This document shows positions 27,464 through 43,234 of a stretch of 64,000 nt of DNA, in pieces. Each line of letters opens with the position of its first letter. The stretch's first letter is position 1. The position numbers and the translations under genes are program-made. Below the pieces are notes generated by a model. That model was not told where the DNA came from. It worked only from the letters and a program-made list of their open reading frames with translations, and did not search any database. Location of the stretch: positions 562,409-626,408 of the forward strand of contig NZ_CYUJ01000003.1 of NCBI RefSeq assembly GCF_001299475.1, read 5' to 3'. Origin of the DNA: Neofamilia massiliensis (GTDB lineage: Bacteria > Bacillota > Clostridia > Tissierellales > Peptoniphilaceae).

Positions 27464-30436
27464 TTATTTTACTAGGTCTCTTTCGTATATATCTCTATAA
27501 GGGTCTAAGTTTTCTAAGGCCAAGTCCTTGTAGGTTTTTGCGTCTTCTTTAAAAAGCTCTTTAAAATATTTTTCTCCTTGGTCTTTCTCAATATTTTTTG
27601 AAGTTGTATACATGACAAAGTTTAAAATTCCCAAAGCCCTTGGGTCTTTTATTTGCTGGTCTGCTTCCAGCCCTAAGTCTAAATATTTTTTTGCATTTTC
27701 TAAATCCTTTTCTTCAAAGGCTATTAGACTCATATAGGAATATAAAACTGACCTCTTCCAATAAAAGTCATAGGCTTCAAAAATTTCCTGAGCCTTGGAA
27801 AAATATAATTTGCTCTCTTCTAGATTTTTTTCATAGTAAAGAGTCTTACCAATATTTATATAAAAAACTGCCAGTGACGACTGAACCTTTTTTTCTGAGC
27901 CTAGGTCTATGGCTTTTAAAAATTCTTTTTTGGCCCTAGAATAATCTTTTCTCGCCAAATATATTTCTCCTATATAAGAATAGGCAGCGGCAATGTTAGT
28001 TGCATATTGGTTGGCGATTTCTTCTATAACAGAGAGGGTGTTAATTGAATCCCTTAAAAGTTTTTCTGCTTGGTCATAGGTCCCCTTCATTAAATAGTAA
28101 AGACCTTTAAATCTTAAAAACATAGAAATTTCCTTGTGGTAGTTGGCCTGGGCTGATAACTTTAAGCCTTCTTCAATATAGGCTCCCATGTCAGCACTTT
28201 CATTAACTTGGATTTTATAATAAATTAGCTGCTTGTAGGCCTTTAGCATATATGAAAGATCGTCAGAAAATTTGGCCTTAGTTAGAACATAGTTAATGTC
28301 TTTAAGGCCTAGTTCATAGGATCCTGTTCTTATTAAATACCTGCCTCTTATATAAAAATATTTTTTCTTCAAGTCTTCCAGGTCTGCACAGCCAGTTTTT
28401 TCTAGCTGGTCTAATTTTTCTTTTAAGCTAAAAAGTCTCTCATCTATAAGCTCACTTTCAATATAAATTTTTCTATTTTCGTTAAAGTCTATATCTTCTA
28501 AAACTGGATAGAGTTCGTGGCTGTAAGTTAGATAGTAGTCGAGGATTTCAATTTCGTAGAAGACTTCCTTGGCCTGGTCTTCTCCTTGGTAGAAGTGATA
28601 GGAAAGTTCTTCTAAATATTTTAGTTTATTTTTATATATTTTCGGATTTTTTTCTAAAAGGTCGCCAATTTTTTTGTGGTAGAGCCTTCTTCTAGCCTTG
28701 TTTGAGTCTAAGTAGACAAAGTCCTTGATTTTTTTGTAGACAAAGTCATAGTAAAGGGTGCCGTCTTTTTCTATTTCGTAGAGGATATTTCTCTTTGCTA
28801 ACTTGTCCAAAAGGTTGACAGTTACTTCTCTGTCCAAGTCTGTTAACTTAAAAATTATTTCTAGAGGAAAGGGTTCTTTAAAAAAAGACAAGAGATTTAA
28901 AAGGCTTTTCTCTCCTTGTTTAAAGGAAGTAAAACGAGACCTTATGTCCCTAACTAGCCTTTCATTAAGCTGGCCAATTTCTTTACCTTCAATGGCCTGG
29001 CTGGTAAAGACTTCCATAAAGAGAGGATTGCCTTGGGCCTGGTCATAAATTTTTTTAAAAGAATCTTTTTTAAAGTCAGGTCCCATAACCTTTCTTACAT
29101 ATTTTTCTCCTTCTTCATAGGTAAGCGGCCTTAGGAAAATTTTTTCTAAAATTCTATACTTGTCTAAACTGGCAACCATATCATCAACGTAATCATTAGA
29201 CTTAGATCTTGCTGAGAAAAAGTACATGGTCTTAGACGAATCCTTTAAAATTAATTTAGTCAAAATTTTTGCAGAAGGCTCGTCTATCCAGTGGACATCT
29301 TCAAAATTAAAAATCCTATAGATTCCATCGTCTAAAATTTTTATTTGCTCAAGTAATTTTTCTTCTAAGTCCCCTAGGTAAAAATCAAGAGCCTCTCCTC
29401 TGCTACTTGCTTCTTGAATTTTTCTAATGGTTTTTAAAAGCCTGTCAACTCTTGCTCCTTTAATTTTCTCTAAGTTTTCTAAAAAAAATTTTATGACATT
29501 TAAGACCCTGCCTTCTTCAAATTCATAGCAAGGTATATTATAAATTTCAATCTCTCTTGAAAAATCTTCATAGGCCCTAGTTAACAAGGCAGATTTTCCA
29601 ATTCCAGCCTCACCTTCAAGATAAAGAGCTTTAACTTTCCCGGCATTTTTAAAGTTTGAAATAATCTGGTGGATTTGGGCCAGTTCCTTTTCTCTGGCTA
29701 GATAAAAATAAGAATCCTTAGTAGATTTTCTTAAATCTGAATTTATTTTTTCAATGGCTTCTTCGTAAAGATTTTTAATTTCTTGGCCAGGCTTAACGCC
29801 TAATTCTCTTTTTAATAAAACGTCTAAATCAGAATAAAGTTCTATGGTTTTTTTGTAGCGCTTGTTTAGGAGATAATAGGTCATTAAAAGCCTATAATTT
29901 TCTTCGTCTAAGTTGTCAAGGTCAATAAGTTTTTGTAGGTCTCCTTCTACACTTAAGAAATTTCTTTTGTCAATGTCTTCTCTGGCTTTTTCTTGGAGAT
30001 TTCTGTAATATTTTTCAAAATACTGGCCCCTTTTATTGTGAACCCAACGTTCGTATCCTTCAGAATCTCTAAGATTAAAGCCTTGGAGGAAGTCGCCTTG
30101 GTAAAGATAGGATTTGCCCTTGGGATCTTTTAAGAAGTCTTCTAAATCTGTCTCTATATCTATATCTTCATTAAGTTGGAGAATGGTGTTGTTAGGAGTT
30201 AGAATAAAGTCCTTATCTATAGTTTTTCTAGTGTGGTAAAGGACATTTCTCAAATTTTTCTTGGCTGTCTTTTCACTATCTTCTGGCCAAAGGAGTCCTG
30301 CCATTTCCGATCTGGAAACTGTTTTTTGAATTATCATATAGTAAATAAAGCCTTCGATTTTTGAATAGGAAAACTTTACTTTTTTTCCGTCTACATATAT
30401 TTCCCCTAGGCCAAATAATTTCGCCTCAATCTTCAA
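27464..30436 (-). CDS. SARP/BTAD-AAA-TPR transcriptional regulator (TTG start)
   Basis: About 990 residues. The N-terminus has an OmpR-type winged helix and BTAD domain (about 1-235: GEIYVDGKKV, LRNVLYHTRKTID, LDEENYRLLMTYYL). An STAND/AAA ATPase follows with Walker A GEAGIGKS (275-282) and Walker B-like IFNFEDVHWIDEPS. The C-terminal half is made of TPR-like helical repeats. Such regulators sense a ligand through the TPR half. I start it at TTG 30436 (AGAGGTG upstream): a TTGACG-N17-TATAAT promoter sits at 30486-30514, so the longer frame would begin before the transcript. Divergent from the permease-hutH operon, which it may control. Confidence 0.85.
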   Translation of the reverse strand: MKIEAKLFGLGEIYVDGKKVKFSYSKIEGFIYYMIIQKTVSRSEMAGLLWPEDSEKTAKKNLRNVLYHTRKTIDKDFILTPNNTILQLNEDIDIETDLEDFLKDPKGKSYLYQGDFLQGFNLRDSEGYERWVHNKRGQYFEKYYRNLQEKAREDIDKRNFLSVEGDLQKLIDLDNLDEENYRLLMTYYLLNKRYKKTIELYSDLDVLLKRELGVKPGQEIKNLYEEAIEKINSDLRKSTKDSYFYLAREKELAQIHQIISNFKNAGKVKALYLEGEAGIGKSALLTRAYEDFSREIEIYNIPCYEFEEGRVLNVIKFFLENLEKIKGARVDRLLKTIRKIQEASSRGEALDFYLGDLEEKLLEQIKILDDGIYRIFNFEDVHWIDEPSAKILTKLILKDSSKTMYFFSARSKSNDYVDDMVASLDKYRILEKIFLRPLTYEEGEKYVRKVMGPDFKKDSFKKIYDQAQGNPLFMEVFTSQAIEGKEIGQLNERLVRDIRSRFTSFKQGEKSLLNLLSFFKEPFPLEIIFKLTDLDREVTVNLLDKLAKRNILYEIEKDGTLYYDFVYKKIKDFVYLDSNKARRRLYHKKIGDLLEKNPKIYKNKLKYLEELSYHFYQGEDQAKEVFYEIEILDYYLTYSHELYPVLEDIDFNENRKIYIESELIDERLFSLKEKLDQLEKTGCADLEDLKKKYFYIRGRYLIRTGSYELGLKDINYVLTKAKFSDDLSYMLKAYKQLIYYKIQVNESADMGAYIEEGLKLSAQANYHKEISMFLRFKGLYYLMKGTYDQAEKLLRDSINTLSVIEEIANQYATNIAAAYSYIGEIYLARKDYSRAKKEFLKAIDLGSEKKVQSSLAVFYINIGKTLYYEKNLEESKLYFSKAQEIFEAYDFYWKRSVLYSYMSLIAFEEKDLENAKKYLDLGLEADQQIKDPRALGILNFVMYTTSKNIEKDQGEKYFKELFKEDAKTYKDLALENLDPYRDIYERDLVK

Positions 30437-30485
30437 AAATTTGACACCTCTTTCCTGTGAATAATTTTCTGATATTATTGACTTT

Positions 30486-30514
30486 ATTATAGTAGAATAT
30501 AAAATTTTCGTCAA
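30486..30514 (-). promoter_or_regulatory. Promoter of the BTAD regulator
   Basis: On the minus strand TTGACG (30509-30514), 17 bases, TATAAT (30486-30491). Its position rules out translation from upstream frames and supports the TTG start at 30436. Confidence 0.75.
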
Positions 30515-30720
30515 ATTTATAAGGATGAAGAAAAAATTTTTCAAGGACTTTACCTAGATTTTTTCGACTTTATTTTAAAGGTTTTATTTTTTATTAAACG
30601 TTTTTTTGACATTAATTTTGCTGATTTACTAGTTTTATAGGTTTTTAGTCTAGAATTTTTTTTGAGGAAAATCTTTTCCTAAAAGGTCTTTGGATTTATA
30701 TATGTTTTTTTCTAAACTAT

Positions 30721-30741: not shown

Positions 30742-30801
30742 AGTGGTATATTTACTTTAGAATAGTTGTTATTAAGTTTTAATATTATTAGGAGGACAAT
30801 T

Positions 30802-32178
30802 ATGTCAATTATTACTAACCCTGTAGTAGTATCGGTAATAGTTTTATCGGCACTATGCTTATTAAAATTTAATATTCTTTTAGCCTTGATAGTAGCAGCT
30901 ATTGTTGGGGGCCTTCTTGGTGGAATGCCTTTAGCAGCAGTAAAAGATAGCTTTACTTGGCTTCCAGGAACAGTTGCTCAATCTGAAGAGATTCCTGGAG
31001 TTGTTGACGTTCTTATTGATGGTATGGGTGGAAACTCTGCTACAGCCTTAGCTTATATCCTACTTGGTGTTTTCGCTGTAGGTTTAGCTAGATCTGGTCT
31101 TGGAACTATTCTTTCCAGAAAGCTATCAGGAACCCTAGGTAAGAGCAAGGCTGCTATGGTATTTACAATTGCAGCAGTTGGATGTTTATCTCAAAACTTA
31201 ATTCCAATTCACATTGCTTATATGCCTATTTTAATTCCACCACTACTAGGCCTAATGAACCAAATGAAGTTAGACAGAAGAGCTATGGCTATAGCACTTA
31301 CCTTCTCAGTTAAGGCACCTTATATTGTAATTCCAGCAGGATTCGGACTTATTTTCCAAGGTATAATCAGAGACCAAGTGAATGCAAATGGCCTTAATGT
31401 TACAATAGGTGATGTAACTTCTGTTAACTGGATTGGCGGTCTATCAATGCTTATAGGTCTAATTATTATGGCTACTTACTTTATGAGCAAGCCAAGAGAA
31501 TATGAAGACCTACCAATTATTGGTCAAGAAGAAGGAGCAGATGAAAAAGAAGTAACTATGAACAAGCAAGCTTGGGCAGCCTTAATTGGCGCCATCGTTA
31601 CTGCCTTTACTTCTATTGCTACTGAATCACTTCCACTTTCTGCCTTATTTGGTGTATTAACTATGTTAATCCTAGGCGGAATTAAATTCTCAGAACTTGA
31701 TGACGTAGTAAATGGCGGTATTGGCATGATGGGCTTTATAGCCTTTGTAATGCTAGTTGCAGCAGGATACGGTGCAGTTTTATCTGCTACTGGAGCTGTT
31801 GAAAGCCTTGTTAAAGCATCAGCAGCAGCTATGCACGGTAACAAAGCAGTTGCAGCCTTTGTAATGCTTCTAATTGGACTTTTAATTACAATGGGAATCG
31901 GATCTTCCTTCTCAACAATTCCAATTATTGCTACTATCTTCGTTCCACTAGGACTTGAATTAGGATTCTCACCAAAATCTATAATCCTATTAGTAGCTTT
32001 AGCAGGAGCTTTAGGAGATGCAGGTTCACCAGCATCTGACTCAACTCTTGGACCAACATCAGCTCTTAATGCTGACGGTCAACACGACCATATTTGGGAC
32101 TCTTGTGTTCCATCATTTATAGCATTCAATATCCCACTAATTATTGGTGGCGTTATTGGCACTATGATTTTAGGATAA
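30802..32178 (+). CDS. YuiF-like Na+/H+ antiporter-family permease, probable histidine transporter
   Basis: 458 residues, about 11-12 membrane helices. The profile and blocks such as NSATALAYILLGVFAVGLAR, and the C-terminal GALGDAGSPASDSTLGPTSA, fit the YuiF branch of the Na_H_antiporter superfamily, several members of which sit beside hutH and carry amino acids. The ATG at 30802 has GGAGG six bases upstream; an upstream TTG at 30766 has no site and precedes it without reason. hutH follows after 62 bases without a terminator, so histidine uptake is the natural inference. Confidence 0.82.
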   Translation: MSIITNPVVVSVIVLSALCLLKFNILLALIVAAIVGGLLGGMPLAAVKDSFTWLPGTVAQSEEIPGVVDVLIDGMGGNSATALAYILLGVFAVGLARSGLGTILSRKLSGTLGKSKAAMVFTIAAVGCLSQNLIPIHIAYMPILIPPLLGLMNQMKLDRRAMAIALTFSVKAPYIVIPAGFGLIFQGIIRDQVNANGLNVTIGDVTSVNWIGGLSMLIGLIIMATYFMSKPREYEDLPIIGQEEGADEKEVTMNKQAWAALIGAIVTAFTSIATESLPLSALFGVLTMLILGGIKFSELDDVVNGGIGMMGFIAFVMLVAAGYGAVLSATGAVESLVKASAAAMHGNKAVAAFVMLLIGLLITMGIGSSFSTIPIIATIFVPLGLELGFSPKSIILLVALAGALGDAGSPASDSTLGPTSALNADGQHDHIWDSCVPSFIAFNIPLIIGGVIGTMILG

Positions 32179-32240: not shown

Positions 32241-33782
32241 ATGGAAAAAGTAATTTTAACTGGCGACAGCCTTACTTTAGACCAAGTAATTGCTGTTGCT
32301 AGAGACTATGCACAAGTAGAAATCGACGAAAAAACTATGGAACAAGTAGTTGCTTCAAGAAAAGTTGTTGAAGACATTGTTGAATCTGAAAGAGTAGTAT
32401 ACGGTGTTAACACAGGATTTGGTTCTCTAGCTAGAGTATCAATTTCAAAAGAAGACACAGCCCAACTACAAGAAAACCTAATTAGGTCTCACGCTGTTGG
32501 TTACGGCGCTCCACTTGCTGACGATGAAGTAAGAGCAATTATTTTAATTAGAGTTAACTCTTTAATTAAAGGTGTATCTGCTATTAGAAGAGAAACAATT
32601 GAAACTCTACTTGCAATGTTAAACAAGGGTGTTGTTCCTTATATTCCAGAAAAAGGATCAATTGGTGCATCTGGTGACCTTTGTCCACTAAGCCATATGG
32701 TTCTTCCAATGTTAGGTCTTGGCTATGCTTTCTACGAAGATGAACTTCTAGATGGTAAAGACGCTATGGAAAAAGCTGGTATTCCAATAATTAAACTTGG
32801 AGCAAAAGAAGGACTAGCACTAAACAACGGTACAACTGTAATGACAGCTATCGGTGCCCTAGCAACTTATGACGCCCTAGAACTTGCAAAAGTTGCAGAT
32901 ATTACTGGAGCTTTATCACTAGAAGCCCACAGAGGAATTATCGACGCCTTCTATGATAAACTTCACGACATTAGACCTCACCAAGGTAACCTAACAACTG
33001 CTGAAAATATTAGAAACCTAACAGAAGGTTCTACTTTAACAACTCACACAGCAGAAATTAGAGTTCAAGACGCTTATACTCTAAGATGTATGCCACAAGT
33101 TCATGGTGCTTCTAAAGACACTATTAACTATGTAAGATCTAAGGTAGACATTGAACTTAACGCAGCAACTGACAACCCAATTGTATTCTCAGATGGCCAA
33201 GTTATTTCAGGTGGTAACTTCCACGGTGAACCAATGGCTCAACCATTTGACTTCTTATGTATTGGTGCAGCAGAATTAGCAAACATTTCAGAAAGAAGAA
33301 TCGAAAGATTAGTTAACGCAACTCTATCTGAATTCCCATCTTTCTTAGTTAAAAAACCAGGTCTAAACTCTGGCTTTATGATTACTCAATATTCTGCAGC
33401 AGCTTTAGTATCTGAAAACAAAGTACTAGCACATCCTGCTTCTGTAGACTCAATAACATCTTGTGAAAACCAAGAAGACTTTGTATCTATGGGAACAATT
33501 GCATCTAGGAACGCTAGAGACATTGTTGAAAACCTAAAGAGAGTTGTAGCAACTGAACTAATGGCAGCTTGCCAAGCTATAGACTTTAGAAAAGATTTAA
33601 ATCCAGATCTAAAACTAGGTAAGGGAACTCAAGCAGCCTATGACCTTGTTAGAGAAAACATTCCATTTATCGATGACGACAAGAACTTCGAATTATTCGA
33701 CGAACTTGAAATAGCAACTGCTATAATCGAAGATGGTAGCTTACTAGAAGCTGTAGAAGCTGTAGTAAAATTAAATAACTAA
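32241..33782 (+). CDS. hutH: Histidine ammonia-lyase
   Basis: Removes ammonia from L-histidine to give urocanate. The 513-residue length is standard. The MIO prosthetic group forms from the ASG tripeptide in KGSIGASGDLCPLSHM (about residues 137-152). Other family blocks are YGVNTGFGSLA and NPIVFSDGQVISGGNFHGEP. It lies behind the permease as a two-gene operon, then a strong terminator. None of the later pathway genes (hutU, hutI, ftcD, hutG) is in the window. Codon use is biased to a few codons, as in highly expressed genes. Confidence 0.96.
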   Translation: MEKVILTGDSLTLDQVIAVARDYAQVEIDEKTMEQVVASRKVVEDIVESERVVYGVNTGFGSLARVSISKEDTAQLQENLIRSHAVGYGAPLADDEVRAIILIRVNSLIKGVSAIRRETIETLLAMLNKGVVPYIPEKGSIGASGDLCPLSHMVLPMLGLGYAFYEDELLDGKDAMEKAGIPIIKLGAKEGLALNNGTTVMTAIGALATYDALELAKVADITGALSLEAHRGIIDAFYDKLHDIRPHQGNLTTAENIRNLTEGSTLTTHTAEIRVQDAYTLRCMPQVHGASKDTINYVRSKVDIELNAATDNPIVFSDGQVISGGNFHGEPMAQPFDFLCIGAAELANISERRIERLVNATLSEFPSFLVKKPGLNSGFMITQYSAAALVSENKVLAHPASVDSITSCENQEDFVSMGTIASRNARDIVENLKRVVATELMAACQAIDFRKDLNPDLKLGKGTQAAYDLVRENIPFIDDDKNFELFDELEIATAIIEDGSLLEAVEAVVKLNN

Positions 33783-34569: not shown

Positions 34570-37500
34570 TTATTTTCCCAAAAGAATTATTGGTCCTTGG
34601 TCTTCTTTAAAGAGGCCTAGGTCCTTAACTTCTTCTAGGCTTAGGTAACTATTGCCATCTTCATCTTCTATTAGATCTTTTAGGTCAAAAGATTTATCTG
34701 CAATTTTTAAAACAAAACTTCCAGAATCGTTTTTAAGGTCAACTTGTGGAATAGCTTTAAGAACTCTTAGATCTACATAGCCTTTTGATTCAGGGCTTAT
34801 TTTCAAAGTCCCTTGAGGATAAATTATATCATCTACCTTAAACCTTCTAATTATAGCTGGGTAAAAGTCTAAGTTTTCTGGAATTAACAAATACTTAAAA
34901 AGACTTTCAAAATCTAGCCTATAAAAGTCTGGATACTTAGAAAATAATACGTTCTTCGCCTGACCATCTGAATAGAAATAAATTTCGCTGGTTCCAAAAA
35001 GTTCTTCTCTTAAATCCTTAAAGATCTTTTCTGCATCCCTGTCATTGTCTTCATCCTTTTTAGAAAAAGTATAGATAGGATCTTCCTTAGAATCTGCTTT
35101 TAATGTCTTATAAACTTCACAATCTAAAGAAAGTTCTCCATCTTCAAACTTATAAGTCTTTAGGCTAGTCCTACTTAGGTCGTCTTTGTAGTCTTCTAGA
35201 ATAAAGAAAGTCTTCTCCTGTCCTCCAACTCCATATTCAAGCTTTTGGTTTAGTCTTCTATTTATAGATTCAGAAAATATTTGAACTAAGCTTTCGTCAT
35301 CTGGGTCATAAGTGTAGGCTAAAATTATTAGCTCATCATCTAAGCTAAGTTTTAGAATAAACTCTTCTACTCCGTCGCCGTCTAAGTCATAAAAAATTCC
35401 TGAGTCAATACTAAAGGCAGTTTCTTTATCACCCTTACTGGCTTTGGCTTTTTCATAAAGGTCTAAAAGTTTATTTAAATAAGCCTTGTTTGCTTCTATT
35501 AAATTTGTATTATCGTCTAAGTCTTCTACAAATTCATCTAACTTGTCTTGATCAGATAAAATTTCTAGGTCTTTGGTATCTAGAGCCTTTATAGCTAAAG
35601 AGTTTCCTTCTTCTCCATAATAGTACCTGCCATAGTAGTAGGCCTTGTCTGGATTTTCTCCATAGTAGTACTTAATTCTCTCTGCCTTATAAGAAAAGTC
35701 ATCTTCAAGGGCAGAAATAAGCTCTAAGTCTCTAATAGATTTTACTCCCCCTCTTGAAAGCTCTTGGTCAACTCTATCCTTAATGGCCTCGTAGGTTTCT
35801 CCTTGGATTTGTTCACTTAAAGATCCGTCAAAGGATAAGTCAACTATATAGTCTTGGTCCTTGGCGATTATTCCCATTTCCTTAAAAGTAGCAAATGGAA
35901 CATAATAATTTCCCTCTTCGTCCATCATAGGATTTTCAACTGTATAAGTCTTATTGTCTTTTTCAATTACTAAGTTGTCTCCATCTTTTCTTAAAGCTAC
36001 TTGGTCTTGGTCTTTAAAAATAGAGGCATTAATGTGGCCAGTTGAGTCTGCTCTAATTTTTAAAATTTCAGCTGGGAAGATTTGGTCTCCAATTCTAAAT
36101 CTTCTTATAATTGGAAAATCTACTGGCTGTTCAACAGGAATTAGCAAAAGAGAAAGTAATTGGTCTTCTGTAAGGAAGTTATCATAAGCTTCATAAATCA
36201 GGTTTCCTCTCTTGTCTCTAGCTGGATATTCAAAGCCCTCTACTCCAGTTTCACCTTCGGCTAAGGTCTTAGGGTCTACTTTGGCCTTGGCATCTGTAAT
36301 AAAGAAATTAGAATCTGGTCCAAAAAGTTTGTCCCTTAGTTTGTAGTAGCCTTCCTCAGGTGACTCATTGGTATTTGGTTTTATAAAGGTTGAGTTTTCT
36401 ACAAAAGAACTTTCTTCATATTGATTGCTAGTTCCATCAGCTGATAGATAAGTCATATAGCCAACATTTGAATAACCTTCTTCTTGGTAGATCTTATTTT
36501 CTCCCTTGGCCTTTGATAAAAGTCCTAAGTTTGTAGTTACAAAATATCCTGAGTCTGCTGTGTGAGCAAGGAAGACAAAGGTCTTTCCATCTTCTTCATA
36601 AAGACCAGCATCTAGATGAAAATTATAAGTTGAATTTTCTGTTATAGTATCTTCGTATTGGTAAATTTTTATGGCCTGGTTGTTGGCATAGGTGTAAATA
36701 TAAAGGCCTTGAGTTTTTTTCGTATCTGAAAAATTGCTAGTAAGTAAAACTAGGTCTAAGACCCCATCTTGGTCCAAGTCAACTAAAAAACCTTTCTTCA
36801 AAAGACTTTGGCTTTTTCCATCGCCATTTGAATTTTTGGCATTTAGATTTTTGATTTTGAAAACTTCTTCCATGTAGGCCTTGGCAAAAGGTGCCAGATT
36901 TTCATAGCCTGTCCAGTCTATATTTAATGAATTGTGTTCTAAGTTATTTAAAATTTCTTGGTTGGCCTTAGAAATTTCTTCTGTTGAGCTGGCAAAAAAT
37001 GCAATTTCAGATTGGAGATTTATTATAGAACTAGCTTGGAAAAATTCTATGTTAGGTCCGACCTTTCTAAAAATTATTTCCCTATAAGCACTTTCGTCAT
37101 TGACAATTTTTTTAACTAGGTCAACTTGGCCATCTTTGCTAATTTTATAAATTTCAGCTTCATTAGCTGGGATTTTTTTTCCTTTAGAAATTGTCTCTTG
37201 GAAGGGAGTAGCACCATAGACTAAGATATAGAGATTGCCATCTGACCCATCCATTAACTCAACTTGGTTGGTATTTTTCAAATAATAAGGGGCGTCTGCA
37301 TTATAGTAGGGACTTAAAAATACGTCCTTCCAGCTTCCAAACATTCTACTGGCAGTTTCCTCTGCCAATTCTTTTATAACTTCAAACCTAGAGTCTTGAG
37401 AGTATTTAAAGGTCTTTGAAGTCTTGTCTGCTAAAAGTTTTAAAAGTTCCCTATCTCCAGTTTCCATAAAGACCTTGCCAGCATATTGTAAGCCCTTGTT

Positions 37501-37779
37501 AGGGTCTTGGTCGTAATAAGTATTAAAGATGGCCTTCTTGTAGGCCTTGTTGTCTGGATAAAGTTTTTCCATTAGCTCAAGATCTGGAAGATCAGTAATT
37601 AATCCCCTGTCAACTTCTCTATCAACTTTATTCTTTAGATCTTCTTCACTTGCTGAACTAAGTCGGTGCAAGGTAATTTCTGAATCTACTGGTGTGCTTT
37701 CGTTTTCTTTTTTATATAAATAAATAATTCCCACTATGGCCACAATAAAGGCCAAGGCTATGGCAATTTTTTTCTTCAT
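34570..37779 (-). CDS. Large membrane-anchored surface protein built from two homologous halves
   Basis: 1069 residues after an N-terminal anchor helix (KKIAIALAFIVAIVGIIYLY). I do not recognise a named family. The protein is an internal duplication: residues about 44-650 and 663-1069 share the same order of parts. Each opens with a helical segment (KVDREVDRGL.. / RVDQELSRGG..). A calcium-loop-like Asp motif follows (DLDQDGVLDL near 335; DLDGDGVEEF near 798), then a beta-rich stretch. Each ends with IRRFRIGDQIFP / IRRFKVDDIIYP and a Cu-amine-oxidase-N-like closing domain. ATG 37779 is preceded by TTGGAGG. It may bind Ca2+ outside the cell. Confidence 0.75.
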   Translation of the reverse strand: MKKKIAIALAFIVAIVGIIYLYKKENESTPVDSEITLHRLSSASEEDLKNKVDREVDRGLITDLPDLELMEKLYPDNKAYKKAIFNTYYDQDPNKGLQYAGKVFMETGDRELLKLLADKTSKTFKYSQDSRFEVIKELAEETASRMFGSWKDVFLSPYYNADAPYYLKNTNQVELMDGSDGNLYILVYGATPFQETISKGKKIPANEAEIYKISKDGQVDLVKKIVNDESAYREIIFRKVGPNIEFFQASSIINLQSEIAFFASSTEEISKANQEILNNLEHNSLNIDWTGYENLAPFAKAYMEEVFKIKNLNAKNSNGDGKSQSLLKKGFLVDLDQDGVLDLVLLTSNFSDTKKTQGLYIYTYANNQAIKIYQYEDTITENSTYNFHLDAGLYEEDGKTFVFLAHTADSGYFVTTNLGLLSKAKGENKIYQEEGYSNVGYMTYLSADGTSNQYEESSFVENSTFIKPNTNESPEEGYYKLRDKLFGPDSNFFITDAKAKVDPKTLAEGETGVEGFEYPARDKRGNLIYEAYDNFLTEDQLLSLLLIPVEQPVDFPIIRRFRIGDQIFPAEILKIRADSTGHINASIFKDQDQVALRKDGDNLVIEKDNKTYTVENPMMDEEGNYYVPFATFKEMGIIAKDQDYIVDLSFDGSLSEQIQGETYEAIKDRVDQELSRGGVKSIRDLELISALEDDFSYKAERIKYYYGENPDKAYYYGRYYYGEEGNSLAIKALDTKDLEILSDQDKLDEFVEDLDDNTNLIEANKAYLNKLLDLYEKAKASKGDKETAFSIDSGIFYDLDGDGVEEFILKLSLDDELIILAYTYDPDDESLVQIFSESINRRLNQKLEYGVGGQEKTFFILEDYKDDLSRTSLKTYKFEDGELSLDCEVYKTLKADSKEDPIYTFSKKDEDNDRDAEKIFKDLREELFGTSEIYFYSDGQAKNVLFSKYPDFYRLDFESLFKYLLIPENLDFYPAIIRRFKVDDIIYPQGTLKISPESKGYVDLRVLKAIPQVDLKNDSGSFVLKIADKSFDLKDLIEDEDGNSYLSLEEVKDLGLFKEDQGPIILLGK

Positions 37780-37858
37780 TAAATCCTCCAAATGCATACT
37801 TCCAAGGTATTTAGGAAGCATTTGTATTTCTAAAAAAAGTTTTTACTATATCTAGTAT

Positions 37859-37867: not shown

Positions 37868-37963
37868 ATAAAACGTCAATTTGTTTAGGGCAAATAGAAA
37901 TTTTATTAGCCTTAAGAAAAGTTTTATCCTTGTTTATAAGCTTTTTATCAAAAAATTTCCAAG

Positions 37964-38008
37964 AAAAAACCAGGAGGTCTAAATTTTTCTTTTAGCTTCC
38001 TGGTTTTT
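37964..38008 (-). terminator. Terminator of the dpaL operon
   Basis: ACCAGGA (37969-37975) pairs with TCCTGGT (37998-38004), with a second inner pairing CTAAA/TTTAG, and T-runs on the minus strand. It separates the dpaL operon from the surface protein genes. Confidence 0.8.
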
Positions 38009-38111
38009 TTGTTTAAAGAATCTTTTTTAGTTTTCTAAATTTACTTTTTATCTTTGAGATAGGTCTTTAATTGTATCTAAAAGTAGCGCCATCGTATGGT
38101 TTCTTTGTCCA

Positions 38112-39344
38112 TTAATATTTGCTGGTATAAATATAGCTTCCTTCGTTTTTATAAAGGCCGTCCCAAACTATTTTTCTGTAATGTTCAAAATCTGTATCTC
38201 CTTCAGTTGAGAATAAAAGAATTACAGAATTTTCATCAAGGCCTAGTTTTTCTTTCCATTCTACTAGGTCCTTTCTTTGGCAAAGGTCAGCTAAAACTCC
38301 AAGACTTACTGCTCCTGACTCTCCAGAAATTACTCTCTTGTCATTTCCTAGGGGATTTCCTAAAATTCTCATTCCCCTAGCAGCTGCAGAATCTGGAGCT
38401 GAAATAAAACCTTGAACAAAAGAATCTAAAACTGGCCAGCCAATTGTTACTGGTTCGCCACAAGCAAGGCCTGCCATTATTGTTTCTAACTTTCCTGTAA
38501 CCTTGTGGATTTTTCCATCCTCGGCTTTTGCTGTTTTGTAAAGGCAGTTAACTCTTAATGGTTCAACGACGTTAATCATTGGTTGGTCGTCCTTGTAGGC
38601 TGAAGCATAGTAACCTGTAATTGCTGTTGCAAATGAACCTACTCCAGCTTGAACAAAGATATGACTTGGTCTTTGACCTGCAGCTTCAATTTGGTCCTTG
38701 GCTTCTTTTGCAAGGGTTGCATAGCCTTGGATGATCCAAGTAGGAATTTTTTCATAACCTTCCCAAGATGTATCTTGAACCAGGATCCAACCTTTTTCTT
38801 CTGCGTTTTTGTTGGCTAGTCTTACACAGTCATCGTAGTTAAGACCTTCCATAATTTCACATTCTGCTCCGTGAGACCTTATTGCGTCTCTTCTTTGAAT
38901 TGAAGATCCATCAGGCATAAAGATGGTACATTTCTGGCCAAGTTGTTGGGCTGCCCAAGCAACTCCGCGACCGTGGTTGCCATCTGTTGCAGAAACAAAA
39001 GTTACATCTCCAAGTTTGTCTTTAACTTCTTTTGAAAGCATTTTTTCTTGAGTTAATTCTGCTAGGTCAATGTCAAGTAGGTCTGCTATATATCTTCCAA
39101 TGGCAAAGGATCCGCCTAAAACCTTAAAGGCGTTTAAGCCAAACCTATAGGACTCGTCTTTTATAAAAATATTTTTTAGGCCTAAAAGTTTTGCTAGATT
39201 TTTAAGTTCTAATAATGGTGTCTCTTGGTACTCGTCAAATGATTGGTGGAACTTTTGTACCTGGTTTACAAGATCTTCGTTAATGAATGCTAACTTACTT
39301 TGGTCCTTGTCAATGTCTCTAAGAAAAATTTTATAGTCTTGCAA
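38112..39344 (-). CDS. dpaL: Diaminopropionate ammonia-lyase
   Basis: PLP enzyme of the YgeX/DpaL family that breaks D- and L-2,3-diaminopropionate to pyruvate and two ammonia. The 410 residues show the PLP Lys in the block RFGLNAFKVLGG (about 66-77), SATDGNHGRGVAWAA for phosphate and substrate binding, and GVGSFATAITGYY. Full length. It is the last gene of the five-gene operon starting with the DapF-like racemase, 43 bases after the aldolase. Its presence beside an amino acid racemase suggests that a D- or L-amino acid is made and then broken down. Confidence 0.92.
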   Translation of the reverse strand: MQDYKIFLRDIDKDQSKLAFINEDLVNQVQKFHQSFDEYQETPLLELKNLAKLLGLKNIFIKDESYRFGLNAFKVLGGSFAIGRYIADLLDIDLAELTQEKMLSKEVKDKLGDVTFVSATDGNHGRGVAWAAQQLGQKCTIFMPDGSSIQRRDAIRSHGAECEIMEGLNYDDCVRLANKNAEEKGWILVQDTSWEGYEKIPTWIIQGYATLAKEAKDQIEAAGQRPSHIFVQAGVGSFATAITGYYASAYKDDQPMINVVEPLRVNCLYKTAKAEDGKIHKVTGKLETIMAGLACGEPVTIGWPVLDSFVQGFISAPDSAAARGMRILGNPLGNDKRVISGESGAVSLGVLADLCQRKDLVEWKEKLGLDENSVILLFSTEGDTDFEHYRKIVWDGLYKNEGSYIYTSKY

Positions 39345-39387
39345 GTTCTCATCTCCTTTGTCTTTGCTTTTTTATTTTAACTGGTTT

Positions 39388-40032
39388 TTATTTTTGCCCA
39401 TAGCCTTTAAAGGCATCGATTACTTGGTCCATTTCTTTTTTATTTAAAACGAAAGGTCTGCCAATGGCCATGGTTCTAACTTGGATTTCTGCTACATATT
39501 CTAAGGTCTTTGCTAGGTTAAAGGCAGACTTTAAGTCCTCGCCTAAGGTTACTAGTCCGTGGTTTGCTAGTAAAACTCCCTTGCTCTCTCCACAAGTTTC
39601 AACTGCTTTTTTCGCTAGGCTCTTGCTGCCATATCTTTCGTAAGGAGCGCAAGGAACCCTGTTGGTATTTGCATCTGCCAGAACATAGTGTACAGCTAAA
39701 ATTGGCATGCGCATTGCTGCCAGGCAGGCACAATACATTGAATGAGTGTGGACTATGGCAAAAATGTCGTCGCGATTTTTGTAAAAACTTGTATGCAAAA
39801 ACCATTCACTTGATGGCTTCTTGTCTCCTTCAATAACATTTCCATCTAAATCTATAAGAACCAAGTCTTCTTCTCTTAGGTCAAAGTAGTCAATACCAGA
39901 TGGACTTATTAAAACAAGATTTTCCTCTTTTAAAAATACAGACAAGTTGCCTGAAGTACCTGGAGCAAGTCCCTCTTCTTTCATTTTCTTTCCGTATGAA
40001 ATTAGTTCTTGTCTTTCTTCTAAATATTTCAT
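39388..40032 (-). CDS. Class II aldolase (FucA/Ald2 type), zinc-dependent
   Basis: 214 residues of the class II aldolase/adducin family. Visible are the phosphate-binding TSGNLSV block, the catalytic Glu in SSEWFLHTSFY, the zinc ligands in VHTHSMYCA and the third His in LLANHGLVT. Downstream of mtnK and mtnA homologues it would cut 5-methylthioribulose-1-phosphate or 5-deoxyribulose-1-phosphate to DHAP and an aldehyde, as in the DHAP shunt of E. coli and Rhodospirillum and the drd pathway of Bacillus. Sequence alone would also allow fuculose-phosphate aldolase; the operon argues against that. Confidence 0.85.
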   Translation of the reverse strand: MKYLEERQELISYGKKMKEEGLAPGTSGNLSVFLKEENLVLISPSGIDYFDLREEDLVLIDLDGNVIEGDKKPSSEWFLHTSFYKNRDDIFAIVHTHSMYCACLAAMRMPILAVHYVLADANTNRVPCAPYERYGSKSLAKKAVETCGESKGVLLANHGLVTLGEDLKSAFNLAKTLEYVAEIQVRTMAIGRPFVLNKKEMDQVIDAFKGYGQK

Positions 40033-40040
40033 AATAACTC

Positions 40041-41093
40041 CTAATAAAATTCTTCTTGGTCCACGGAAAAGTATTCTTCTAGGTCTTCTGGTTTGTAAAT
40101 TCCCTTGTCAGTTACTACTGCCTTAATTAAGTTACTTGGAGTTTTATCAAAGGATGGATAGTAGCCCTTGACTCCAAGTTGACATTGTTTAACTCCATTA
40201 AAGGAAAGAACTTCTTCTGGGTCTCTCATTTCAACCTTAACTGCATCTAGGTTTTTCTTGCCTTGGTCTGGAATTCCTGTCACATAATAGGGGATGGAAA
40301 AGTAATCGGCAAGCAAGGCGATTTGATAGGTGCCAACCTTGTTAACAACAGATCCATCTTCTGTAATTGTATCTGCTGCAGAGGTGAAAAGGTCTACCAT
40401 GCCCTTAGACATAATATCCGCAACCATATTGTCAGTTACAACAGTTGTATCAAAGCCCTCTTCTGCAAAACAAGAAGCAGTTAACCTGGCTCCTTGTAAA
40501 AACGGCCTAGTTTCTGCACAGATCACTTTGAATTTTTTATTGGTCTTTTTTGCACCAGCAATAAGTGCGCCAATTATAGTTTCGCCAAAGCACTGGGTTA
40601 AAATTGTCCCCTTGTCTGGAATGACTTTTAATAAGTTGTCGCCAACTTTTTGCATGGTCTTATACCTGCGATTTAAAGATGCAACTGTGTCTTCAAAAAT
40701 TAAAGGCACTGGATCAAGGTCATTTTTTATTGCGTCTTTGGCAATTTTTAGAGCTCTTGAAGTTATTTTTCCATAGCGAAAGGCAGTAGTCGGTCTAGAA
40801 TTTCTAAGAGCTTTTTCTGCTTCTTCTAAAAACCTAATGCGCTTTTCATTTGCAAGATCTCTAGATTCATAAGCAGCAAGGGCCATGGCCATGCCTACTG
40901 CAGTATAAGGTCCAGCTGATTGGGTCACCATATTTCTAATGGCGTCTACAACTTCTCTATAGGACTTACAAATTACAAACTTTACCTCTCTAGGATAAAG
41001 TCGCCTGTCTAAAATTGTAACCTTGCCATTTTCATACCAGGCAACATTTTCGTATTTTAATAAGAAGGGCATATTTTGGTCGTATCTAATCAT
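40041..41093 (-). CDS. mtnA: Methylthioribose-1-phosphate isomerase (eIF2B-alpha-like)
   Basis: 350 residues, usual MtnA length. Blocks: TQSAGPYTAVGMAMALAAYE, GTILTQCFGETI with the catalytic Cys, ETRPFLQGARLTA, DNMVADIMSKG, and an SAADTITEDGSVVNKVGTY segment carrying the catalytic Asp (GADRI in standard MtnA, here AADTI). It converts aldose-1-phosphate to ketose-1-phosphate. The HCN/NTG around the Cys in typical MtnA is QCFGET here, so substrate preference may have moved, perhaps to 5-deoxyribose-1-phosphate. It overlaps the kinase by 8 bases and precedes the aldolase by 8. Confidence 0.87.
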   Translation of the reverse strand: MIRYDQNMPFLLKYENVAWYENGKVTILDRRLYPREVKFVICKSYREVVDAIRNMVTQSAGPYTAVGMAMALAAYESRDLANEKRIRFLEEAEKALRNSRPTTAFRYGKITSRALKIAKDAIKNDLDPVPLIFEDTVASLNRRYKTMQKVGDNLLKVIPDKGTILTQCFGETIIGALIAGAKKTNKKFKVICAETRPFLQGARLTASCFAEEGFDTTVVTDNMVADIMSKGMVDLFTSAADTITEDGSVVNKVGTYQIALLADYFSIPYYVTGIPDQGKKNLDAVKVEMRDPEEVLSFNGVKQCQLGVKGYYPSFDKTPSNLIKAVVTDKGIYKPEDLEEYFSVDQEEFY

Positions 41094-42294
41094 ATTTTTT
41101 TATTTCCTCATTTATAAAATTAACAACTTGGCTTCCTGCTTCCAAGTCAGACCTATTTTCAATTAAATAAATTCCCGTTTCAACTAAAAGCCTGTCTAGG
41201 ATCTGTCTGACTTTTGGATCCTTAACTTCTGTTAGTTCTCTAACCTTTGAGTCTCCAACTGTCCTTCTAATAATTTCAAGACCTGCGTAGGCAAAGGAGT
41301 CGGAGATAATATCTTTAAGATAGGCCTCTTTAAAGTTTTCGTTTTTAAAGTAGGGAAAGGTCACAAGGATGTCATAGGCTGAAAAGAGTTTTTCCATGGT
41401 CTTATCCACAGTTTCTACAAAAAGTTTTTCTAAATTTAAAATCATTTCTCGATCAGACCCTGTAACAAGATGGTTGGCAAGGGGAAAAATTAAATTTCCC
41501 CAAAGGTTGCCAATGTCGTAGCCAAAGGGCCCATAAAAGGCAAACTCTGGATCAATTACCTTGATGCCGTCTTCCTTTACAAAAACCGATCCTGTATGAA
41601 GATCGCCGTGAAGGAGACCTTGGGAATAAGTTTGAAAGCGGTCTTTTAGTTTTAAAACTTGACCTTGGAGACTTAAGTTTTTATAAAGTCTCTCTTCTAC
41701 AAAGTCCTCTGTCCCTGGACTTAAAATATTTCTATTTTTATAGTCGTAGTAGGGCTCGGTAAAGACTAGGTCTTCAGAAATATCGCAAAGGTCTGGGTTT
41801 ATAAAAAATCCCATGGCCTCTTTCTTCTCTTTCCTGTCTGCAACTAAGTCTGAGGTCGGAAAAAGTGATTTTACTAAAAATTCTGCCAGGTCTTCGCTTA
41901 AATCTTTATAAGTTTTTCCATTTAAAAGTTCATATCTTAAATTTTTGTAGGCAGAAATATCCTCCATAATAATTATAGAATTTTCTTCGTCATAATAATA
42001 AACTTCTGGGACCATCCCTGGACAAAGGTCTCCTTTTATTTCTAAGGCTTTCGCTTCGATTTTAGATCTTTTTAAGTCTAGGGGCCTTTGAGATGACCTT
42101 AGGAGTACATCAGAATATTTTACAACTAAAGACTTTCCTCTTTCTTCCTCAACTAGTCTGTAAACATAATTAATATTTCCATCGCCTATTTCTTCAATGG
42201 AAATCTGGTCCTTGGCTGCAAAAAATTTCGTCCTTGCAAGGACCAAGTCTATAATCTTATTTTCTCTTTTTTCTCTAGCAAAATTTTTGGTCAT
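41086..42294 (-). CDS. mtnK: 5-methylthioribose kinase-like protein
   Basis: 402 residues, MtnK-type aminoglycoside-phosphotransferase fold. The motifs IGDGNINYVYRLV (nucleotide loop), HGDLHTGSVF (catalytic loop) and IDPEFAFYGPFGYDIGN (metal site) are those of MtnK rather than of homoserine or choline kinases. It phosphorylates methylthioribose (or 5-deoxyribose) at C1, the first step before MtnA. The nucleosidase that releases methylthioribose from MTA is not in the window. Overlaps mtnA by 8 bases; 30 bases after the racemase gene. Confidence 0.88.
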   Translation of the reverse strand: MTKNFAREKRENKIIDLVLARTKFFAAKDQISIEEIGDGNINYVYRLVEEERGKSLVVKYSDVLLRSSQRPLDLKRSKIEAKALEIKGDLCPGMVPEVYYYDEENSIIIMEDISAYKNLRYELLNGKTYKDLSEDLAEFLVKSLFPTSDLVADRKEKKEAMGFFINPDLCDISEDLVFTEPYYDYKNRNILSPGTEDFVEERLYKNLSLQGQVLKLKDRFQTYSQGLLHGDLHTGSVFVKEDGIKVIDPEFAFYGPFGYDIGNLWGNLIFPLANHLVTGSDREMILNLEKLFVETVDKTMEKLFSAYDILVTFPYFKNENFKEAYLKDIISDSFAYAGLEIIRRTVGDSKVRELTEVKDPKVRQILDRLLVETGIYLIENRSDLEAGSQVVNFINEEIKKYD

Positions 42295-42324
42295 TGGGAC
42301 CTACTTTCTATCTTTTTCTAAAAA

Positions 42325-43116
42325 CTATAAATCAAATTCTACTTTTTCTATGGTGCCAAAGGAAACTGGCCCACCAATAGAATAAGTTAAGGAGTCATTA
42401 ACTTGTTGGGCCTTGACTTCTAGGCTGCCTCTTGGTTGTTTTAAGGTCGCCTTAAAGCCTGGATTTTTGTCTTTATTTAAATAATATCCTGCTGAAAAAG
42501 TTCCTGACCCACAAGATCCTTCTCTGATTAGGGTTTTTGTCTCTTCTACATAGACGTAGGGAACCAAGGTCAGATTTTTTTCATCTAAAAACATAAGGCC
42601 ATAGGCGTCATCTGTATAGAAATTTTTTAGCTCATTAATAATTTCTTCAGCAAGATCCCTATCTTCTTCTCTGTCGTTTACTATGACGTGGATAATTCCA
42701 TCTAGGAAAACTGTGGTGTAAGTGCCTCCAGCAAGGCTTAAATTTTTTACTTCCCTAGCTGGACTTAAAATTATTTCAGCTGTCATCCGATCCTTGTCGA
42801 CTTTTACTTGAACCTTGTCTTTGGATCCAGAAACTTCTGCTTCTATTAAGTCTTCGTCAAAAAGGTCTAGGGTCTTTGCTAAATACAGGCCAAAGGACCT
42901 TGAGGCATTGGCACAAAATTCTCCGCCCATCATGTCCATACGATAAGTGCCGTCAGCTTTTTTAGAAATAAAGCCAACTTGTTCAACGCTTGGATCATAA
43001 TCATCTATAATAATATTTGCAATTTTCGCCCTATGGGATGGATCAACATCTCCAATAATAAAAGCTGTTATATTGCCTGCAGGATCCACTTTTAAATAGT
43101 CTAACTTGTATTTCAT
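42325..43116 (-). CDS. DapF-like PLP-independent amino acid racemase/epimerase
   Basis: 263 residues of the diaminopimelate epimerase superfamily. Both catalytic Cys positions are kept: the first in GGEFCANASRSFG (about 66-78; DapF has CGNGxR) and the second in REGSCGSGTFSAG (about 209-221). The protein is similar in size to DapF, but the motif changes suggest that it is not the lysine-pathway enzyme. The superfamily also has racemases acting on histidine (staphylopine pathway CntK) and proline. It opens the mtnK-mtnA-aldolase-dpaL operon. Natural substrate unknown. The AAGGAGG ribosome site precedes the ATG. Confidence 0.8.
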   Translation of the reverse strand: MKYKLDYLKVDPAGNITAFIIGDVDPSHRAKIANIIIDDYDPSVEQVGFISKKADGTYRMDMMGGEFCANASRSFGLYLAKTLDLFDEDLIEAEVSGSKDKVQVKVDKDRMTAEIILSPAREVKNLSLAGGTYTTVFLDGIIHVIVNDREEDRDLAEEIINELKNFYTDDAYGLMFLDEKNLTLVPYVYVEETKTLIREGSCGSGTFSAGYYLNKDKNPGFKATLKQPRGSLEVKAQQVNDSLTYSIGGPVSFGTIEKVEFDL

Positions 43117-43149
43117 AAGTCTGCCTCCTTGGTCTGATATTTTAATTAG

Positions 43150-43158
43150 ATTGTACCA
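43150..43158 (-). promoter_or_regulatory. Extended -10 promoter of the racemase-mtnKA-aldolase-dpaL operon
   Basis: On the minus strand TGGTACAAT (TG plus TACAAT at 43150-43155), 34 bases before the ATG at 43116. The -35 is poor. Confidence 0.45.
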
Positions 43159-43188
43159 TATAATCTTAAAATTTACTTTACTTACTAG

Positions 43189-43217
43189 TCTACAAAAAAG
43201 CTTTTTTGTGCTAAAAT
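43189..43217 (+). promoter_or_regulatory. Promoter of the SGNH hydrolase gene
   Basis: TCTACA (43189-43194), 17 bases, TAAAAT (43212-43217), with a TG at 43209-43210. It is back to back with the minus-strand operon promoter. Confidence 0.45.
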
Positions 43218-43234
43218 TTTCTTGGTGATTAAAA

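What the first reader, a model, noticed from the sequence alone, without database searches (positions are those of the whole stretch)
38112..43116. MTR/5-deoxyribose disposal genes in one operon with a DapF-like racemase and diaminopropionate ammonia-lyase
mtnK, mtnA and a class II aldolase form a known route (DHAP shunt/drd pathway) for the sugar left from MTA or 5'-deoxyadenosine. Here they are bracketed in the same transcript by a racemase with both DapF-type Cys and by DpaL. I know of no described link between these. One explanation is a SAM-consuming route that makes an unusual diamino acid and releases MTA, with this operon clearing both. Another is simple metabolic convenience. The MtnA residues near the catalytic Cys also differ from the standard HCNxG.
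Basis: partly seen in the sequence, partly recalled or inferred. Interest (0 to 1): 0.72.

Follow-up and report, generated by a model that had tools for sequence, protein, structure and literature searches.

The report
Histidine racemase beside deoxyribose-salvage genes
The five genes are real, but the 'DapF-like' enzyme is a histidine racemase whose real partner across Clostridia is histidine ammonia-lyase (also in this window), which suggests the bacteria eat D-histidine; its place beside sugar-salvage genes looks like a genus-specific accident of gene loss.

Summary
The five-gene set (hisR-mtnK-mtnA-ald-dpaL) is real and tightly spaced. The racemase is not DapF: it matches F. nucleatum HisR and S. 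aureus CntK histidine racemases in sequence, fold and active site, and no DapF was found in this genome. Its partner is histidine ammonia-lyase (HutH), at 32241-33782 with an NhaC-type transporter. All 37 racemase-bearing genomes of the family (9 genera) carry HutH. So do 6 of 9 outside the family, against 30 of 365 racemase-less ones. In at least nine loci hutH sits directly upstream of the racemase. The genome carries the histidine-to-glutamate-to-methylaspartate route. mtnK-mtnA-ald is a stripped-down DHAP shunt with a DrdA-type aldolase. The racemase adjoins it only in this genus (3/3 genomes), and racemase and MtnK do not co-occur in the family (4/37, p=0.43). DpaL joins only in this species; in a sister it belongs to the reductive uric-acid cluster. 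So this is convenience, not one pathway. The by-product matters more: HisR, whose role was published as unclear, looks like the D-histidine entry step of anaerobic histidine fermentation. No biochemistry was done.

The parts
42325..43116 (-). hisR: cofactor-independent histidine racemase (HisR/CntK family), first gene of the operon
   Evidence: NF052224 HisR 154 bits, NF033599 CntK 120 bits; PDB 9cr6 4e-30; AlphaFold model pLDDT 93, best Foldseek hits HisR 2e-25 TM 0.81, then CntK, then DapF about 1e-14; C68, C202, N15, E45, E66, N70, E199, S204 kept
41086..42294 (-). mtnK/drdK: methylthioribose / 5-deoxyribose kinase
   Evidence: TIGR01767 355 bits, cut-off 275; PDB 2olc 4e-73
40041..41093 (-). 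mtnA/drdI: (methylthio/deoxy)ribose-1-phosphate isomerase of the QC[FY]GET clade
   Evidence: PRK05720 321 bits, cut-off 271; C168 and D241 kept, motif shared by other family members; the only IF-2B family member in the genome
39388..40032 (-). ald2/drdA: class II aldolase, DHAP-forming
   Evidence: best PDB match 6btd = DrdA of B. thuringiensis, 1.4e-61 (PDB code confirmed in PMC6079011)
38112..39344 (-). dpaL/ygeX: 2,3-diaminopropionate ammonia-lyase, recent or relocated addition
   Evidence: TIGR03528 604 bits, cut-off 532; PDB 5ygr 1e-124; long branch 0.53 vs median 0.1
37950..38010 (-). terminator-like hairpin with U tract after dpaL
   Evidence: fold -18.3 kcal/mol, z -2.4
43117..43234 (.). 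118-bp divergent promoter region between hisR and a GDSL-hydrolase gene; TGGTACAAT-type extended -10 also seen in the sister genome
   Evidence: sequence and alignment of two genomes; no transcript data
32241..33782 (+). hutH: histidine ammonia-lyase, the predicted metabolic partner of hisR
   Evidence: TIGR01225 651 bits, cut-off 539; Pfam PF00221 3e-195
30766..32178 (+). NhaC-type transporter (PF03553), predicted histidine carrier
   Evidence: Pfam 9e-57; homologues (46-57% identity) beside hutH and/or hisR in several other lineages
27464..30544 (-). BTAD/AAA/TPR regulator divergent from NhaC-hutH, candidate regulator
   Evidence: Pfam; same arrangement, by gene size and position, in G097 and G098

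Best explanation
This is a catabolic operon made of three functionally separate pieces. (1) hisR encodes a two-cysteine histidine racemase that interconverts D- and L-histidine, so that D-histidine can enter the histidine fermentation route (HutH, HutU, HutI, FtcD, then glutamate, methylaspartate, pyruvate and acetate); hutH and a likely histidine carrier lie 8.5 kb away. (2) mtnK-mtnA-ald is a minimal DHAP shunt: 5-deoxyribose (or methylthioribose) left by the MTA/5'-deoxyadenosine nucleosidase is phosphorylated, isomerised and cleaved to DHAP plus an aldehyde. (3) dpaL turns free 2,3-diaminopropionate (possibly D-serine) into pyruvate and ammonia. They share a transcript because a larger DHAP-shunt cluster next to hisR lost its regulator, transporter and accessory genes in this lineage, and dpaL then moved in, probably from a uric-acid degradation cluster. 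Shown: gene identities, spacing, residues, co-occurrence, presence of the histidine route and the nucleosidase. Inferred: D-histidine as the physiological substrate, single transcript, direction of gene loss, origin of dpaL.
For: Racemase identity: family models, PDB search and fold all rank histidine racemases first; the residues proposed to bind histidine in HisR (Asn18, Glu65, Glu206, plus both Cys; PMC11602996) are conserved, including the Glu that is Ala/Leu in DapF/HypE; no PF01678 DapF in the genome although the control rang in 9 genomes. Link to histidine catabolism: HutH in 37/37 racemase genomes of the family vs 16/93 without (p 4e-20; by genus 9/9 vs 7/30, p 5e-5); outside the family 6/9 vs 30/365 (p 4e-5); HutH inside 13 of 80 racemase loci vs about 0.5 expected, in at least nine directly upstream on the same strand (L092, L107, L109, L117, L121, L124, L127, L128, L131), in others with the NhaC-type carrier (L090, L104, L110, L300, L302, L303); racemase beside FtcD-Fhs-FchA-GlmL in Peptoniphilus/Anaerosphaera and FtcD-FchA-Fhs in C. 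aminophilum. Own genome: HutU, HutI, FtcD, GlmS/L/E and methylaspartate ammonia-lyase over curated cut-offs; Fhs by BLAST homology (64%), FchA-like only weakly. DHAP shunt: DrdA-type aldolase, MTA/SAH nucleosidase present, fuller clusters in relatives. DpaL: heads dpaL-ygeW-ygeY-arcC-ygfK-ssnA in sister G097, ygeW absent here.
Against: Racemase scores lie well below the strict HisR/CntK cut-offs (154/400, 120/300), so substrate is inferred. Many racemases (Blautia, Treponema, some Oscillospiraceae) lie in loci with no HutH within 9 kb, and 3 of 9 racemase genomes outside the family had no HutH, so hut coupling is not universal. In F. nucleatum added D-histidine did not rescue the hisR mutant (PMC11602996). 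In the window hisR and hutH are on opposite strands 8.5 kb apart.
Confidence: 0.72

Rival explanations
1. One reading: the racemase makes a D-amino acid for a SAM-dependent aminobutyryl transfer (staphylopine/nicotianamine-like) that releases MTA, and mtnK-mtnA-ald plus dpaL clear the by-products.
For: The racemase is indeed of the CntK/HisR family and CntK works in exactly such a SAM-consuming, MTA-releasing route; an MTA nucleosidase is present.
Against: No PF10100 opine dehydrogenase in the genome (control silent); racemase and MtnK do not co-occur in the family (4/37, p 0.43; by genus 2/9, p 1.0); no aminobutyryl-transferase among the neighbours examined; DpaL adjacency is not conserved in the genus.
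Confidence: 0.04
2. hisR works in the opposite direction: it makes D-histidine from L-histidine for a cell-wall, signalling or regulatory use, and co-occurs with hut genes only because these organisms take up much histidine.
For: HisR's role in F. nucleatum is unsettled and D-histidine did not restore growth of the mutant; many racemases sit away from hut genes.
Against: Tight same-strand hutH-hisR pairs, sometimes with one transporter, in several lineages and co-location with FtcD/Fhs/FchA/GlmL point to catabolism; F. nucleatum depletes D- as well as L-histidine (PMC11602996).
Confidence: 0.18
3. The five genes form one regulated scavenging regulon for nucleic-acid and amino-acid debris (deoxyribose from nucleosides, diaminopropionate from purines, D-histidine), kept together by selection for joint expression.
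For: Tight spacing and one terminator-like hairpin; racemase-shunt proximity conserved in three congeners; all pieces end in central carbon metabolism.
Against: Order and content differ in each of the three species; DpaL in one only; no regulator of the shunt remains next to it in the window. Without expression data selection cannot be told from chance.
Confidence: 0.2

Closest known systems
HisR histidine racemase of Fusobacterium nucleatum (PDB 9CR1/9CR6; PMC11602996)
   Same: Fold (TM 0.81), about 32% identity, both catalytic Cys, proposed histidine-binding Asn and Glu residues.
   Different: Genome context: F. nucleatum hisR is an orphan gene, in other fusobacteria near folate-biosynthesis genes, with unclear role; here and across Clostridia the family pairs with hutH and folate-dependent histidine catabolism. 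Below NCBI's equivalog cut-off.
CntK histidine racemase of the staphylopine system (PDB 6JIS)
   Same: Same superfamily branch and residues.
   Different: 26% identity; no cntL/cntM context.
DHAP shunt / drdKIA 5-deoxyribose salvage (B. thuringiensis PMC6079011; E. coli PMC10986504)
   Same: Kinase, isomerase and DrdA-type aldolase adjacent in one set; nucleosidase elsewhere in genome.
   Different: Isomerase of the QC[FY]GET type; the regulator, transporter and accessory dehydrogenases present in relatives are gone; headed by hisR.
Reductive uric-acid degradation cluster (ygeX-ygeW-ygeY-ygfK-ssnA; PMC12507026)
   Same: dpaL is the ygeX of this cluster in the sister species.
   Different: ygeW is absent from this genome and ygfK/ssnA were not found in the 84% examined.

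Membership tests
Histidine racemase (HisR/CntK) | Two catalytic cysteines at the equivalent positions | tested here: met
   C68 and C202; invariant in 15 homologues
Histidine racemase (HisR/CntK) | Glu at the HisR Glu65 position (Ala/Leu in DapF/HypE) and Glu206, Asn18 | tested here: met
   E66, E199, N15 (residues from PMC11602996)
Histidine racemase (HisR/CntK) | Score over the NCBIfam equivalog cut-off | tested here: not met
   154 of 400 and 120 of 300 bits; filed as homologue of the kind, not as the same equivalog
Histidine racemase (HisR/CntK) | Racemisation of histidine in vitro | not testable with these tools
   needs purified enzyme
DapF diaminopimelate epimerase | Match to Pfam PF01678 / TIGR00652 | tested here: not met
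   No Pfam family for the protein; no TIGR00652 hit to it; no PF01678 in the genome
DHAP shunt / drdKIA | MtnK-type kinase, MtnA-type isomerase and class II aldolase clustered | tested here: met
DHAP shunt / drdKIA | Aldolase closer to DrdA than to fuculose-phosphate aldolase | tested here: met
   PDB 6btd (DrdA) 1.4e-61 ranks above all FucA entries, by a small margin over 4c24
DHAP shunt / drdKIA | Activity on 5-deoxyribose or methylthioribose | not testable with these tools
   needs assay
Staphylopine-type zincophore cluster | CntM opine dehydrogenase (PF10100) | tested here: inconclusive
   none found, but the control search was silent too
Staphylopine-type zincophore cluster | CntL nicotianamine-synthase-like transferase | not tested
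Reductive uric-acid cluster | ygeW, ygfK, ssnA beside dpaL | tested here: not met
   ygeW absent from genome; others not in the 84% examined

The most novel reading that the evidence does not exclude
A widespread, undescribed D-histidine utilisation module in anaerobic Firmicutes: a DapF-fold histidine racemase, an NhaC-type carrier and HutH feed D-histidine into histidine fermentation. This would give the physiological role that was reported as unknown for HisR.
Probability: 0.55. Interest if true: 0.65.

Novelty: new variant of a known kind. Interest (0 to 1): 0.5.

Why it matters
Cofactor-independent histidine racemases were known from two characterised enzymes, and the role of the non-staphylopine one was left open. 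A consistent pairing with histidine ammonia-lyase turns that into a directly testable statement: anaerobes of host-associated flora use D-histidine. Gut histidine breakdown also competes with production of imidazole propionate, a disease-linked metabolite (PMC13320830), so an entry step for D-histidine would be relevant there. For the finding as given, the message is that adjacency in one operon did not reflect one pathway.

Tried and rejected
SAM/diamino-acid pathway: rejected for lack of co-occurrence and conservation. Ordinary DapF: rejected. MtnA as inactive or new enzyme because of its odd motif: rejected, the motif is clade-typical and Cys/Asp are kept. DpaL broken or losing its active site: not supported, only 3 of 122 otherwise invariant positions changed, none at the KV site around residue 74. 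RNA elements in the window: none in Rfam at gathering thresholds. Distant DNA search of E. coli genomes with mtnA, to see the E. coli motif: no match.

Full report
What is there. The five ORFs lie on the minus strand at 43116-38112 with 30-, -8-, 8- and 43-bp spacings and a terminator-like hairpin behind dpaL, so one transcript is plausible. Library searches confirm a methylthioribose-kinase family member, an MtnA-type isomerase, a class II aldolase and a diaminopropionate ammonia-lyase. The kinase, isomerase and aldolase match solved MtnK (2olc), MtnA (1t9k) and DrdA (6btd) (6BTD is DrdA according to PMC6079011).

The racemase. It has no Pfam DapF match. NCBIfam gives histidine racemase HisR (154 bits) and CntK (120 bits), both below their strict cut-offs; PDB sequence search gives HisR at 4e-30 and CntK at 4e-25; all 15 aligned relatives match both models. 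A confident model (pLDDT 93) matches HisR best (2e-25, TM 0.81), then CntK, and DapF only at about 1e-14. The residues proposed for histidine binding are kept, including the Glu that replaces a hydrophobic residue of DapF. No DapF was found in the genome while the control rang.

Its partner. HutH lies in the same window (32241-33782) behind an NhaC-type transporter; the same block, HutH to racemase about 9 kb, is conserved in the sister genome G097. Over 130 genomes of the family the racemase occurs in 37, and every one has HutH, against 16 of 93 without the racemase; counted by genus 9/9 against 7/30. In an even draw of 393 genomes of the class, outside the family, 6 of 9 against 30 of 365. 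Among 80 named racemase loci, 13 hold HutH where about 0.5 is expected; in nine, hutH is directly upstream of the racemase on the same strand, and in others the homologue of the window's transporter lies between or beside them. In Peptoniphilus and Anaerosphaera the racemase follows ftcD-fhs-fchA-glmL, and in C. aminophilum it is near ftcD-fchA-fhs. On the family tree the HutH-linked racemases fall in several places around the window's clade. Related genomes are not independent samples, so the p-values are indications; the recurrence in separate lineages carries more weight.

Pathway completeness. The genome encodes HutU, HutI, FtcD, methylaspartate mutase S/L/E and methylaspartate ammonia-lyase over curated cut-offs, plus a 64%-identical Fhs and weaker FchA homologues, and an MTA/SAH nucleosidase. 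So both the histidine fermentation route and the supply of 5-deoxyribose/methylthioribose are present.

Why the genes are together. In relatives the shunt comes as transporter-mtnK-mtnA-2-hydroxyacid dehydrogenase-FGGY kinase-ald-Fe-ADH, and in congener G098 this cluster, with a SorC/DeoR regulator, sits directly downstream of the racemase gene. In the window and G097 those extra genes are missing, so the racemase now abuts mtnK; in G097 mtnK and mtnA are even fused. The simplest reading is loss of accessory genes. DpaL adjoins only in the window's species; in G097 it heads a dpaL-ygeW-ygeY-arcC-ygfK-ssnA cluster, the known reductive uric-acid pathway (PMC12507026), of which ygeW is absent here. 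The window's DpaL sits on the longest branch of 32 but keeps nearly all invariant positions.

Conclusion. The racemase-MTA link fails the co-occurrence test, and the racemase-histidine-ammonia-lyase link passes it. The literature held here describes the role of HisR as unclear (PMC11602996), and searches found no paper linking it with HutH; subscription papers were not searchable. D-histidine catabolism is an inference from genome context and needs the assays listed.

Noticed in passing
window 27464-30544: A 1026-aa BTAD/AAA/TPR regulator is divergent from the NhaC-hutH pair; a similar-sized gene sits in the same place in both congeners (L188, L189), making it a candidate regulator of histidine catabolism.
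   Followed up: partly
L032:6634-8895 (-): In the sister genome G097 MtnK and MtnA form one 753-aa ORF, a natural kinase-isomerase fusion; in the window the two genes overlap by 8 bp.
   Followed up: partly
window 38112-39344: This DpaL has by far the longest branch among 32 family members and does not group firmly with its congeners, fitting relocation and altered constraint after loss of the uric-acid pathway.
   Followed up: partly
window 40041-41093: A clade of DHAP-shunt MtnA proteins carries QC[FY]GET (or QCFAGT) at the catalytic Cys and a TQSxGPYTA stretch near the N-terminus instead of the canonical HCNAG form; whether it marks substrate preference is unknown.
   Followed up: partly
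window 34570-37821: 1083-aa protein without any Pfam match, conserved next to an SLH-domain protein in the sister genome (62% identity).
   Followed up: no
L078-L101 (Blautia), L097-L115 (Treponema): Racemases of the same family in Blautia and Treponema have no hut gene nearby; their role may differ.
   Followed up: no
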